Under the pieces are notes generated by a model. The model saw nothing but the letters and a program-made list of their open reading frames with translations. It had not been told where the DNA came from and searched no databases. Shown one piece after another: positions 7,401-52,400 of a stretch of DNA of 64,000 nucleotides (position 1 is the stretch's first letter; each line of letters opens with the position of its first letter). Location: NCBI GenBank assembly GCA_964017155.1, contig OZ024857.1:8601690-8665689 (forward strand), written 5' to 3'. The position numbers were made by a program, and so were the translations under genes. The stretch comes from Oasisia sp. SBJ-2009. Lineage: Eukaryota > Annelida > Polychaeta > Sabellida > Siboglinidae.

Positions 7401-10400
7401 ATGACACTACTGGGTCAACGTCAACAAGAGGCAACTGAATGTGACAACCGTTAAATTGGGTTAAATTATAAAGGTGCTTATATTCCACAAAATATGGTAG
7501 CAATAAAAAAATATCAAACAAGCACTAAGTCAACTCTATGACCGTTTGATGATTTTTCGCTGCAATTGTATTTGGCATTTTACAATACATTTCTCTCAAA
7601 GAACATAACCTTTATTGGCCGTACCATACAAAAAGAGATAATTCCAATATTTCAACACTGTAAAATTCCAAAAATAGCAAATAATATTAAAAGTATATTC
7701 AAATAGGTATGTTGAAATAAAATATCGACCCTTGGATTTTAGTAATCTCAGTAAGACCAACTGGTATTTTTGTACTACACAGTGTATATTCAAAAAGCGC
7801 CCTTATGCTGACGTTGACCCACTGGTCTGTCATCGCAGCAGTTGACACCACTATAAGGTCAGACTAGTGGTGCCATCTGGTGTAAACAGCTAACATCGAT
7901 GTCAACATATCCTTTCTTGTGGACAGGCAGGAAAAATGTCATGGAAAAGCAGAGAATATTGTATTCAACTTTTACCAACATTTATTATGAAGCAGTTGCG
8001 GTAAAATGTAAAATCACTTAAAATAATACAACTAGTGTAATCTTAGAACAACCTAAATGATAAAAAAGTTATATTTTTTGTTACCATAAACATTGGGACA
8101 AATCACATGTCATAAAAACATGACACTGCAGAAGCAGTGTTTTTTTCCCGTCTGAAATCGGTAGTGTTGACATCTATGAAGTAGCAGAACAAAACATATT
8201 ATTGGGGAAATCACTTGTATCATCCCACTGGGAGTATGCCTGAAAACCTCCATGAATGTTCTTAGAGAAAGGATCTGATCATTTGTGACAAATCATTCAT
8301 CTAATTTCATGGGTGCAAACTCATGATGCACTAAGAAGGCATGCAATATATTCTGACATAATTCTCACCTCCCAAAGGTAAAGGGCTGTTATAAATAATA
8401 AAATACATCCAATAGTTGGGCATTAGATATTAATATATTTTTATTGAATAAGTCTGAAATATCATGTGCAAAAACAATTATTTGACGAGGGATCTCTATA
8501 CAATTACCTCGACAGATTATTTTATGGTTTAAATTTGTGAACGGAGATGATGTTATTATAATTACTGAATGAGAAAAGACGAAAACTTGAGGATGACTTT
8601 AAAACACTGGCTTTGGTTGGAGGTATGTGTGTGTGTCGCTTAACAAACAAAAAACAATGCACACAACTATTTCAGGCGAGGCACTTTTAAAACAGAACCC
8701 AATATTGTGTCCATGGCAACATGCAAATCCCCTCAGTTGTGGCAACATAAACCACCTAATACCACAGCATCACTGGACACACATGCAGTTGTCACATCTA
8801 GTTAATGATGTCTAATCTAGCTCATTATCAGAACATCCTGGTAAAAACATGAAATTCTCCACAATATATTTACAAGTCTCTTCTTTGTCGTTTTATTGTA
8901 GAATCCCGCTATGCCATGTTTTATTTGTTGAAATCTGTATCTTAGACTAGGAATAATGATATAAATCCACACCATTTTGTATGCGTCAGCCAGCCTGAAG
9001 CTTTCCCACTCAATATACGTGGTGCCATCTACCAGGCTACAAAATATCTCAATGTCAATGTGAAAAAAAATTGGCATAGTTTTTGTGGGAAATGTACCAA
9101 AAGTATTTACTTTTCATACCCTGTAATTTTGTTGTTTAATTTATAATTATGTCATCATGATTTTTAAACTTGACACAAATCCGCATTGAAACTGGATGCA
9201 TATGTGTCCCTCACAGAATTCTTAAGAGTCAATTGCTGTACATGGCAAATTCACGTGGCATGTTCCTGACCCCATTCTGGAGTTATCTCCTGCTGAAGTC
9301 AAATAAGAATGTTTGCATTTCTTCAATAAACTAGTGAGTGTGATGAATTTTAAAAACTGGACAACTTCATTATGTTGGCCCTATTCATGCATGCAGTGTT
9401 TGTATAAGCTGTTGTCATACTAAAATAGCCACGGCTGATCGTTAAAGGTCAATGAAGGTCAGTGACGTCAGAAGTCTGCATAAACAATATGGCGGCAAAC
9501 TTCATGTTTTTGAGTAGCACAATGCACAACTGCTACGGCTACCTGCCAGAACAAAATAGGCAGACAGAAGACAATTGTCAGGGCAGAAGGAACAAATATG
9601 TCTCGGAGAAAACACGTCGGTCTTTACGCCTTCATACATTAACTGCCTCTATCAGTAACTCAGGTTAACATAAAAGAACTGCGTCAAATTTACGACACAA
9701 GAAACGTCACATATGAATACTTTGGGACACCGTCTGCCATGTCAGCGTGTGATGCCTTCTGATAGGGGGAATTGTTGCAGTTGGCCGACAGACTTTCTTA
9801 GAACTATCTGAGCTGGGAATTTGAGTGAGAGTGTTGCGAGTTTTGTAAACACTGAATTGTAGAAGTGACAAGTTGCTTGTGCTTTGTCAAAACATATTTT
9901 GGCGATATGTACGATAGTACACATGCAGGTTATCCTGTATAACATAGGTTTATAATAAAAACAAACGTACTACTTTCCTTTAATAAAACGTACCACCTAC
10001 CTTTAATAAAAGTAAACGTACTACCTTCTGTCAATAAACAAATAAACTTCCCTTTAATAAGCAGGATTTGGACAGGGAAGATGGAGATATTCACTTGGAT
10101 AAAAGTAAACATATTACCTCCCTTCAATAAACAAATAAACGACCCTTTAATATGCAAGATTTGGACAGGGAAGATGGAGATACTCACTTGGATAAAAGTA
10201 AACATATTACCTCCTTTCAATAAACAATTAAACTTTCCTTTAATAAGCAGGATTTGGACAGGGAAGATAGAGATACTCACTTGGATAAAAGTAAACATAT
10301 TACCTCCCTTCAATAAACAATTAAACTTTCCTTTAATATATAATAATAAGCAGGATTTGGACAGGGAAGCTGGAGATACTCACTTGGAGGCTGTGAAGAT

Positions 10401-49400: not shown

Positions 49401-52400
49401 ATGGGAATCAAGTTAAAAACCACTGAATGTGATATTAACAACTGTAAAAAACAAGTACACCACACATTTATTTTATGAATGCAAAGATATTTATGATTTT
49501 CATATTTCACTCAGCAAACCGGTGTCATAATTCCATGAGAGTTTGCACAGGGACTACTTTTTGCCTACTAACCTCTTCCTGCTTGCGGCGTATCATGACA
49601 TCCTTCTTCTTCGTCTCTGCCTCGAGCGTGCGGATCTGGTTGTCCTTTTGCCTCTGTTCTTTCTTAAACTGTGCCATTTCCTTCGAGCGACGCTGCTCTA
49701 CTCGTCGAACCTTTAACGTCTCGTCTTTGATCTGGTTCATCAGTTTCACCTGGTGGATAAAGTAAAACTAATTGTAATACCTTCGTAATGTTTTTACTTA
49801 AATCAATTAAGAAGAATGCAAATAATAGATATATGTGACAGGTAATTTTGTTGAAATTTATTATCTGGTCCTGTTGTGATAAACAAAATGTCCACAATTA
49901 GGAAGTTTTGGAAGGCCGTGATAACAAACACCCTTAACAGAAATGACCAAAAAGGACAACAAATTATCCACATTTAAGACAAATTAATTTTATCTAAGTG
50001 AACATTAGATAAAAACCTAAGCAATACGACTTTCAACATTCCACCACAATTGGGTTAAAACATCACAGTTGTAATGATAAACATGCAACAGCAACACCCT
50101 GGGTGGAATGACCTTGAACACTTGAACTAACCTTGAGCTTCTTCATCTCCTTGAGGTCGTTCTGCATCATCTTCAGTTGTTTCTCCGACTGCTGCTGGTT
50201 GCGCAGCAGCTTCGCGTGTTCACGCTTGGCCGAATTCAGTTTCTTCATCTCGTTCTGCATGTCGTTGAGCTTCTTCTCATACTGCTCACGGATACGCTTG
50301 GCCGCATCTTGCGAGTGAGACTCGACCTCGCCTAATTGGGTGGAATTGTCGTAGTAACATTACCTGTTATGCTTGAATTAATTAATAAGTAAAATTATGA
50401 AACACAAACAAGTTCATTATTCTACCTCACCTGATTGGGCAGAATTGTCGTAATAACATTACCTGTTATGCTTAAATTAATTAATATGTAAAATTATCAA
50501 ACACAAACAAGTTCATTATTATTTTTATTATTAATTACAACACGATTGCTTAGCAGTTTTATTTTAGCAGACTATATATACCTTATTTTGTTACCAACAT
50601 TTCAGTACTTCTAGTAATCATTACATAAGTATTACATATTAAAAATAGTAGATATTAAAAATAGATACGGGGGTAATAGTTAATTATATTACAATAAAAA
50701 ATAAATCATAAAATAGTTCATAAATAGTACATAATAAAAATGTTCGGATATTATAAACAACTTTTAAAGTGAAAACACTCTTTTAAATGTCTTCAGTTGC
50801 ATTCTCTTGTAAATGAATGAATAAATAAAGTCACCATTACGTAAGAGTTAAACAATGAACCAGTAAACGTGACTTACCGAGGTTAGAGAGCACCTTGTCT
50901 CGCTCTACTTCTGTCTCCTTGATGCGAGTCGTCAGAGCCAGCAGCTTGCCCTCGTACTGACTGCGCAGTCCGGAGAGTTTGCGCTGACTCAACTCCAGCT
51001 GCTCTATGAGCTTCTGCTTGATGGAGATCTCACACGTCAGGTCGGCTAGGTCCTCGTGCAAATTGTCCGTCTCTACAGAAGGACAGAACGACATGTGTAA
51101 CAGACATCTCTGATTAAAAACAGCTCCTCTGTGGTGTTTAAACTTTTAAATGTAATGGAATTTTAATTTTAAATGTTACATCACTGGAGAATGTTTCGTT
51201 GGATTTGAGCTTTTGCTGTTTTCATAATGTTCAAAATGGTCGCATCTATGCTGTGCAAAGACGGATGTTCGCATAGGTGTGTGCAGTTTTAGCAACATTT
51301 TGTTTCAATTGAATATATATTACTAGCAAAGAAGAATATGCATAAGTTCTTTGTAAGATTAGAGAGTAATCTGACCAGTTGTCACCATCATATACAAGTA
51401 TATTCTGTAACATTTCATCATAAAGATGCTGTTCAATCAAATAAATTTGTTACAAGCATAACATATGGATGAACGATTACGGCGATTACCCACAGATCAA
51501 ATGTCCTTTACAGAGTCCGTACACATCTGGACATTTCAAATTCAAGGCTATTCAAGACTTTTCAAGGCTATTAGAAAAAGAAATTAAAGACTGTTTTAAC
51601 GACATATGTACTTTTAAGTGCAGCCAATGAAGTTAACATTAAAAAATTTTACTTGACTAAAAAAACAATGGCGCCGACCACAATGAAATACCGATTGCCC
51701 AATGTGCACATAAGTTATTTTTGTGCATAGGCTTTTCCATTTCTGGCTGTTTTTCGTCACATCAATTGAGTCAAAACAATATTTGATTGACCACAATTAA
51801 ATTACTTTTCAAGACTACTTTGCAAAATTCAAGGACTTCAAGGCCTTGAATTTGGTCCAATCAAATTCAAGGCTTTTCAAGACTTTCACAGCCCTGTACG
51901 GACCCTGCCTTTATTTTAGCAGAACAGTTCGGCTACATCGATAACAATTTCACGATTACAGTCACAGCCAACTCTGTGTCGCCGTCTGGCCTACCTGCAA
52001 TTAATACGTGTTAATCGCAGCTAAACGACATGCATAGACAACGTTCCTGTTAGCACGAACACAACAAATAGGTGACGATACCTAACAGGAGATCAGCCAA
52101 ACAGGACAGTCGACATGCGTGAAATGTTAGCGAAACAACAACATCAGACAACATGCAGCTTCCGCAATCACAATCAAGTGCCCACGTGTACCCTTGACCT
52201 TTGACCTTGCCCAGAAATAGCCGACCTCTGTTAGTAAAAAGTAATTAACAGATGCAATGTTCTGTGCTAACATTCAGTGATCTGATTCGTCAGCCGTTGA
52301 TTCGACTCAGTGGTTTTGTTAGTGTCAACATCACGAACGTTAACGTAGAGAATGATTTGGCATGGTCCAGGGATGAGTCATTGTTTCATATTATTATTTT

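What the first reader, a model, noticed from the sequence alone, without database searches (positions are those of the whole stretch)
10055..50525. Tandem duplications repeatedly anchored on KIF21 splice junctions
At five junctions of one gene (w25 donor, w24 donor, w21 acceptor, w19 donor, w6 acceptor) the adjoining intron contains a tandem array whose unit includes the authentic splice site plus 5-24 nt of exon. Unit lengths differ (93, 72, 61, about 65 and 99 bp) and sequences are unrelated, so these are independent events. Two or three other arrays (w13 acceptor, w2 donor, possibly w24 acceptor) look like older versions. Minisatellites starting by chance inside introns should rarely include exon edges. 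This suggests either that local duplication is seeded near exon-intron boundaries or that such duplications are tolerated or selected as decoy sites. It is the clearest unexplained pattern in the window.
Basis: partly seen in the sequence, partly recalled or inferred. Interest (0 to 1): 0.78.

Follow-up and report, generated by a model that had tools for sequence, protein, structure and literature searches.

The report
Tandem repeats copying KIF21 splice junctions
In a tubeworm-like annelid's KIF21 motor-protein gene, five short tandem repeats have copied real exon-intron borders into the neighbouring introns, a kind of repeat known in lancelets as a "mirage"; its presence in a distant animal suggests such copies are widely tolerated and could be raw material for new splicing patterns.

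Summary
The minus-strand gene is KIF21A; I modelled 22 exons. A scan of the whole window gave 20 tandem arrays, all within 9.9-62.5 kb. With array ends from scan, TRF and eye, 5 are seen against 0.85 expected at random (p about 0.001); TRF ends alone give 4 of 15 (p 0.003), scan ends alone 3 of 20 (p 0.048). It is one gene, picked for the pattern. Two further arrays look like decayed versions. Of 18 decoy copies, 17 keep GT or AG, but their splice-site columns are no better kept than the rest, so selection is not visible. The structure is already described as lancelet "mirages". The window is not a lancelet: its KIF21 groups with spiralians, and a nested gene's best named relative is the tubeworm Ridgeia (73%). 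Most likely these are minisatellites whose founding duplication crossed a junction, tolerated because exon definition favours the exon-proximal copy. Whether boundaries seed duplication is open; the genome-wide test could not be run.

The parts
10006..10388 (-). Array of 93-bp units at the w23 donor (last exon base 10384); 4 copies, 5 nt of exon (TCCAA) plus GTGAGT; three decoy donors (GTGAGT, GTGAGT, GTGAAT)
   Evidence: lag scan stops at 10339
11419..11546 (-). Two-copy 72-bp duplication at the w22 donor (last exon base 11533); 14 nt of exon; one decoy donor; use of the decoy would add 24 codons in frame without a stop
   Evidence: lag scan gives 11419-11525, rest extended by eye; not listed by TRF
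16566..16870 (-). Array of 61-bp units at the w19 acceptor (first exon base 16590); 5 copies, about 22-25 nt of exon coding for conserved DRTCKIWD; four decoy acceptors, all TCAG
19006..19665 (-). Array of 65-bp units at the w17 donor (last exon base 19645); 10 copies, 21 nt of exon; nine decoy donors, eight with GT and one GG
50322..50520 (-). Two-copy 99-bp array at the w5 acceptor (first exon base 50331); 10 nt of exon; decoy acceptor reads CAG where the authentic one reads TAG; use of the decoy meets stops
44115..44581 (-). 33-bp array 55 nt from the w12 acceptor (44060); unit aligns across that junction: probable decayed junction array
60011..62427 (-). 20-bp array filling about 95% of the w1-w2 intron; unit resembles the w1 donor region (62493): possible decayed junction array
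11724..12109 (-). 21-bp array 21 nt from the w22 acceptor (11703); weak resemblance to the junction, ambiguous
10384..62684 (-). KIF21A-like gene, 22 modelled exons (w1-w13, w15-w23); some exons between 42.3 and 19.8 kb and the last exon not found; one more exon near 63767-63840

Best explanation
These are 'mirages': minisatellites whose founding tandem duplication happened to cross an exon-intron junction. A segment of about 60-100 bp holding the edge of an exon, the splice site and adjoining intron was duplicated, and in three of five cases expanded further by slippage or unequal exchange, independently at five junctions of KIF21. Because the extra copies lie on the intron side, the exon-proximal copy still gives the normal protein; with introns over 250 nt, exon definition favours the splice site nearest across the exon, so the decoys are mostly ignored and the array drifts neutrally. 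Shown here: the arrays, the exon content, an excess over random placement in this gene, and that decoys keep splice dinucleotides without being better kept than their units. Inferred: the duplication mechanism, independence beyond sequence dissimilarity, the correct choice of site by the spliceosome, and neutrality.
For: The w19 copies carry exon sequence that codes conserved KIF21 residues, so the junction is the source. Three donors and two acceptors are hit. The four units tested by consensus (93, 61, 65, 99) score 80-108 on their own junction and at most 30 on the other 43. In the five cases the authentic site is the copy nearest the exon body. All 21 gaps between modelled exons are 382 nt or longer, above the roughly 250-nt switch to exon definition. 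Decoys keep GT/AG in 17 of 18. Among decoy copies of three arrays, 5 of 24 splice-site columns vary against 15 of 109 others, as drift would give. Lancelet mirages are reported not to disturb splicing.
Against: No RNA data: decoy use is untested. Tolerance alone predicts the random rate, while 5 against 0.85 are seen, or 3 against 0.84 with lag-scan ends only. The exon share of the unit is smaller than a uniform breakpoint gives (p=0.012). The proximity paper found that the stronger site is dominant in 86% of events, and that before strengths were equalised most events preferred the downstream, intron-proximal 5' site; the w5 decoy ends CAG against TAG at the authentic site. The length of the intron after w23 is unknown.
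Confidence: 0.75

Rival explanations
1. Exon-intron boundaries seed tandem duplication in this genome, for instance through co-transcriptional structures or a step in base composition at the boundary, so junction arrays are over-represented by mutation. It would act together with tolerance.
For: 5 of 20 arrays span a junction against 0.85 expected; 4 of the other 15 lie within 100 nt of one against 1.27 expected, p=0.03; two or three of those look like decayed junction arrays. Mirages recur in several lancelet genes.
Against: One gene, chosen because the pattern was seen. With lag-scan ends alone only 3 of 20, p=0.048 (my odds for this rival were lowered from 0.30 to 0.27 for that). The excess comes from one end of the gene: 4 of 6 arrays in 9953-19764 but 1 of 6 in 42323-62684. 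No array under 50 bp unit spans a junction, 0 of 12. The median distance of the other arrays is not significantly short (p=0.13).
Confidence: 0.27
2. The excess is chance plus selection of a striking window: arrays fall at random, and this gene was picked from many because several fell on junctions.
For: p of 0.001 to 0.048 for one gene, depending on how array ends are drawn, is reachable when many windows are read; the 42.3-62.7 kb part shows no excess.
Against: The same structure recurs in unrelated lancelet genes in print.
Confidence: 0.42
3. The decoy sites are selected: they regulate KIF21 splicing or protect the true site.
For: 17 of 18 decoys keep GT or AG; the w22 decoy would add 24 in-frame codons without a stop.
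Against: Splice-site columns vary as much as the rest among decoys (5 of 24 against 15 of 109). Use of the nearest decoys at w23 and w5 gives stops, and unit lengths of 61 (w19) and 65 (w17) break the frame. No sequence common to all five.
Confidence: 0.05
4. [quoted passage not shown]
For: Intron gain by tandem duplication is established, including a potato case whose duplicate crosses an intron-exon boundary; a mirage-based model exists.
Against: In the four cases where both ends of the intron are known, the array covers one side only and the intron runs on beyond it. The junction at the other end of the intron scores at background for the 61, 65 and 99-bp units and 8th of 44 for the 72-bp unit. 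For the w23 donor the other end is not known.
Confidence: 0.03
5. The arrays are assembly errors.
For: Tandem repeats are prone to misassembly (general knowledge; the globin paper notes an aberrantly assembled mirage).
Against: Copies differ by private substitutions and indels, which simple assembly duplication would not give.
Confidence: 0.04

Closest known systems
'Mirages' of amphioxus (Adh3, globins BflGb6 and BflGb9, TnC, PGBD5); PMC3087553, PMC3902484 (passages seen), Canestro et al. 2002 (not held, known through citing passages)
   Same: Minisatellite-like tandem duplications that contain an exon-intron boundary, at either end of an exon, with units of tens to about 160 bp, many copies keeping AG/GT signals, next to a normal-looking exon
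   Different: Found here in an annelid rather than a lancelet, five times in one gene; no RNA or haplotype data here, whereas the Adh3 and globin cases have transcript data and haplotype or somatic variation
[quoted passage not shown] ATP2A1; potato RdRp), PMC4974935 (passages seen)
   Same: Tandem duplication that includes splice signals, in the potato case also across an intron-exon boundary
   Different: No sign of a new intron here; in the four cases where both intron ends are known the array sits on one side and the intron continues beyond it
Ordinary intronic minisatellites (VNTRs), for example the 38-bp repeat in TERT intron 6 (PMC3948165, PMC11830802; titles and abstract starts seen in a search listing)
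   Same: Tandem arrays of tens of bp inside introns, of which the scan found 15 others here
   Different: The five units include an authentic splice site and exon edge; [quoted passage not shown]

Membership tests
Mirage (minisatellite-like duplication of an intron/exon boundary) | Tandem repeat unit includes an authentic exon-intron boundary | tested here: met
   5 of 20 arrays; 3 of 20 if lag-scan ends alone are used
Mirage (minisatellite-like duplication of an intron/exon boundary) | Both 5' and 3' boundaries can be affected | tested here: met
   three donors, two acceptors
Mirage (minisatellite-like duplication of an intron/exon boundary) | Units of tens of bp to about 160 bp; many copies keep AG/GT | tested here: met
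   61-99 bp; 17 of 18 decoys; published sizes
Mirage (minisatellite-like duplication of an intron/exon boundary) | Normal splicing is not disturbed | not testable with these tools
   no RNA reads; only the in-frame KIF21 model using the exon-proximal copies
Mirage (minisatellite-like duplication of an intron/exon boundary) | Copy number varies between haplotypes or somatically | not testable with these tools
   one haplotype only
Mirages as a cephalochordate-only phenomenon | Occurs in a lancelet | tested here: not met
   KIF21 tree puts the window with spiralians, 96 SH-aLRT, apart from Branchiostoma (31 rows, no annelid row); nested gene 73% identical to Ridgeia piscesae, Annelida
Intron gain by tandem duplication | Both splice sites of a new intron derive from the duplicated copies | tested here: not met
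   4 of 5 introns testable: arrays one-sided, opposite junction not a copy of the unit; the w23 intron's other end is unknown
Intron gain by tandem duplication | Intron absent from relatives | not testable with these tools
   no eukaryote gene structures held
Introner-like elements (definition recalled; one title seen) | Dispersed copies of one sequence at many junctions | tested here: not met
   no sequence common to the five units; 8 of 10 unit pairs no better than shuffles, the 72/99 pair shares a donor-like stretch, 65/99 borderline

The most novel reading that the evidence does not exclude
Junction-spanning minisatellites are a general mutational class of animal genes with long introns, seeded preferentially at exon-intron boundaries and shielded from selection by exon definition. 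They would supply a standing stock of pre-made splice sites from which alternative exons and new introns can be recruited, in annelids as in lancelets.
Probability: 0.23. Interest if true: 0.65.

Novelty: new member of a known kind. Interest (0 to 1): 0.42.

Why it matters
[quoted passage not shown] Five in one annelid gene suggest that duplicating a splice junction is a recurrent and tolerated event far outside lancelets. If the excess at junctions holds genome-wide, the old question of how new splice sites and introns arise becomes directly testable: count junction-spanning arrays per genome, see whether decoys are ever used, and whether young introns carry their remains. It also warns gene finders and RNA aligners, since near-identical decoy sites sit next to real ones.

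Tried and rejected
Genome-wide test: not possible. I found no eukaryote DNA collection among the tools, so no second species or second gene was scanned.

Idea that the window is amphioxus, raised because I recalled mirages: rejected by the tree and by the Ridgeia match.

Intron creation by the arrays: not supported in the four cases testable. Selected decoys: no support.

Missing exons between 42.3 and 19.8 kb and the last exon: a low-stringency search gave only noise, its output partly cut; nine lophotrochozoan relatives added support for w15 and an exon near 63.8 kb. A first attempt to list copies by fuzzy pattern missed several copies and was redone with explicit patterns. The tenth w17 copy (donor GTAAAG, near 19125) was missed by that pattern too and is counted from the sequence.

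Resemblance of array units to junctions as evidence for older cases: some units also scored highly on junctions they do not adjoin (28-bp unit on w22 donor 38, 33-bp on w7 donor 37, 38-bp on w23 acceptor 34), so such matches are only suggestive. The w22 acceptor array scored 41 there because the test window held part of the array; with that part cut off it scores 31.

Literature: nine searches. Among the rows listed none reported mirages outside lancelets; some searches listed only part of their hits, and only openly licensed papers are covered. Canestro et al. 2002 is not held.

For this I lowered the seeding rival from 0.30 to 0.27 and the novel case from 0.25 to 0.23, and raised the chance rival from 0.40 to 0.42.
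Full report
What the gene is. The arrays lie in a minus-strand gene. Homology and reading of splice sites gave 22 exons, w1-w13 and w15-w23, with GT...AG ends; w1-w13 and w17-w23 each translate through without a stop once joined. The WD40 part matches solved KIF21A 7klj at 3.3e-117, the coiled-coil part matches two Pfam KIF21A domains, and the best named protein hits are mollusc KIF21 proteins (2314 proteins at E<=1e-10 among 7981 scored candidates, 120 listed). 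Some exons between 42.3 and 19.8 kb and the last exon were not found.

What the organism is. In a tree of 31 KIF21 rows the window sits with molluscs, a nemertean and a brachiopod (96 SH-aLRT), apart from Branchiostoma; no annelid row was in the tree, and the window fills 45% of the columns. A gene nested on the opposite strand inside KIF21 (23590-24684) has 6 matches at E<=0.001. The first is the window's own protein; the only named one is from Ridgeia piscesae, a siboglinid tubeworm, 73% over 94% of the query. So the window is very probably an annelid near the vestimentiferan tubeworms. This is inference from one named match plus the tree.

The observation. A lag scan of the whole window with one threshold found 20 tandem arrays, all between 9.9 and 62.5 kb. 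With the ends used, five of 20 reach into an exon: w23 donor (93 bp, 5 nt of exon), w22 donor (72 bp, 14 nt), w19 acceptor (61 bp, 25 nt), w17 donor (65 bp, 21 nt) and w5 acceptor (99 bp, 10 nt). Two of these ends are not the scan's own: at w23 the scan stops at 10339, before an insertion in the first copy, and TRF carries the array to 10388; at w22, which TRF does not list, the scan stops at 11525 and I extended it by eye to 11546 across a 1-bp indel. The four units tested by consensus score 80-108 on their own junction and at most 30 on the other 43. Between units, 8 of 10 pairs score no better than shuffles; the 72/99 pair shares a donor-like stretch and the 65/99 pair is borderline. In the five cases the authentic site is the copy nearest the exon body. 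The exon part of the w19 unit codes DRTCKIWD, conserved in KIF21, so there the exon is the source of the copies.

Is it more than chance? Placing each array at random in the gene, with exon overlap allowed up to one unit, gives 0.85 junction arrays expected against 5 seen, p=0.001. Leaving out the 72-bp case gives 4 against 0.79, p=0.006. TRF ends alone (period 20 or more, score 100 or more, merged by hand) give 4 of 15 against 0.64, p=0.003; lag-scan ends alone give 3 of 20 against 0.84, p=0.048. Adding five invented exons for the missing ones gives 1.09 expected, mean p 0.003. Against this: the excess comes from one end of the gene, 4 of 6 arrays in 9953-19764 but 1 of 6 in 42323-62684; no array with a unit under 50 bp spans a junction, 0 of 12, while 5 of 8 with longer units do; and it is one gene singled out for the pattern.

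Older versions. Four of the 15 other arrays lie within 100 nt of a junction against 1.27 expected, p=0.03; their median distance is not significantly short, p=0.13. Of 4000 random non-array windows, 0.05% score as well with the 33-bp unit as the w12 acceptor region does, 0.125% as well with the 20-bp unit as the w1 donor, and 0.45% as well with the 21-bp unit as the w22 acceptor; the 45-bp unit at the w3 donor and the 20-bp unit at the w2 acceptor show nothing. A few units also match junctions that they do not adjoin, for example the 28-bp unit on the w22 donor, so I count two probable and one ambiguous old case.

State of the decoys. Of 18 decoy copies (3 at w23, 1 at w22, 4 at w19, 9 at w17, 1 at w5), 17 keep GT or AG; one w17 copy reads GG. 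Mean pairwise identity over the aligned stretch is 0.906 for w17 (9 of 10 copies aligned), 0.922 for w19 and 0.901 for w5; it was not computed for w22 and w23. Among decoy copies of w17 (7 of 9 used), w19 and w23, 5 of 24 splice-site columns vary against 15 of 109 others, so the sites are not better kept than their surroundings. Use of the w22 decoy would add 24 codons without a stop; use of the nearest decoys at w23 and w5 meets stops. The exon share of the unit is smaller than uniform breakpoints would give (p=0.012); weaker exonic enhancers in the decoys could be the reason, but that is a guess.

How it most likely works. A founding tandem duplication crossed a junction and, in three of five cases, then expanded. 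Because the copies fall on the intron side, the exon-proximal copy still yields the normal exon. The 21 gaps between modelled exons are all 382 nt or longer; the intron after w23 is of unknown length. Under exon definition, with flanking introns over about 250 nt and near-equal sites, the sites closest across the exon are preferred (PMC9225289, abstract and passages). The same paper reports that the stronger site is dominant in 86% of events and that, before equalising strength, most events favour the downstream 5' site, so tolerance should depend on decoys not being stronger; the w5 decoy ends CAG against TAG at the authentic site and is the one to watch.

What is known. Minisatellite-like duplications of intron/exon boundaries are published as 'mirages' in amphioxus globins (units 150-160 bp), Adh3 (10-72 bp), TnC and PGBD5 (60 and 108 bp), reported not to interfere with splicing and, for Adh3, unstable even somatically (PMC3087553 and PMC3902484, passages; Canestro 2002 not held). 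The globin authors propose them as a source of new introns. A potato intron arose from a duplication across an intron-exon boundary (PMC4974935, passages). The present arrays meet the tested features of mirages but lie in an annelid. Among the rows listed by my nine searches none reported a mirage outside lancelets; four of those lists were cut and papers not held are not covered.

Verdict. Real and repeated, and more frequent here than random placement gives by every way of drawing the ends that I tried, though only weakly by one; a new member of a known kind, extended to a distant animal phylum. Whether boundaries seed duplication is the open and testable question; no functional role for the decoys is supported.

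Noticed in passing
window:23590-24684 (+): An open reading frame of about 365 codons on the opposite strand inside a KIF21 intron region encodes a protein 73% identical to an uncharacterised Ridgeia piscesae protein and 52-69% to four unnamed proteins; no Pfam domain is precomputed for any of the six rows. A nested gene of unknown function.
   Followed up: partly
window:54875-59109: 45-bp array of 94 copies, 97% matches; since 45 is divisible by three, frames stay open for over 1300 codons on both strands, which a gene finder could mistake for genes.
   Followed up: no
window:36886-39704: 38-bp array of about 68 copies continuing into a related 40-bp array; lies in a stretch where KIF21 exons are missing from my model.
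   Followed up: no
window:60011-62427: The w1-w2 intron of KIF21 is about 95% one 20-bp array (about 120 copies).
   Followed up: partly
window:43437-43895 and 63295-63624 (-): Open frames that look like the tail ends of LINE-type reverse transcriptase genes (recalled resemblance, no search made).
   Followed up: no
window:32323-32373 and 33023-33073 (-): The same 17-residue stretch (RDKITVTSPSVSRRSGF) is encoded twice about 700 bp apart: a dispersed repeat.
   Followed up: no
window:31151-31313: A two-copy 104-bp tandem duplication within an intron region, not near a modelled junction.
   Followed up: no
window:1-1800 (+): Open frames resembling ankyrin repeats suggest another gene on the plus strand (recalled resemblance, not tested).
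   Followed up: no
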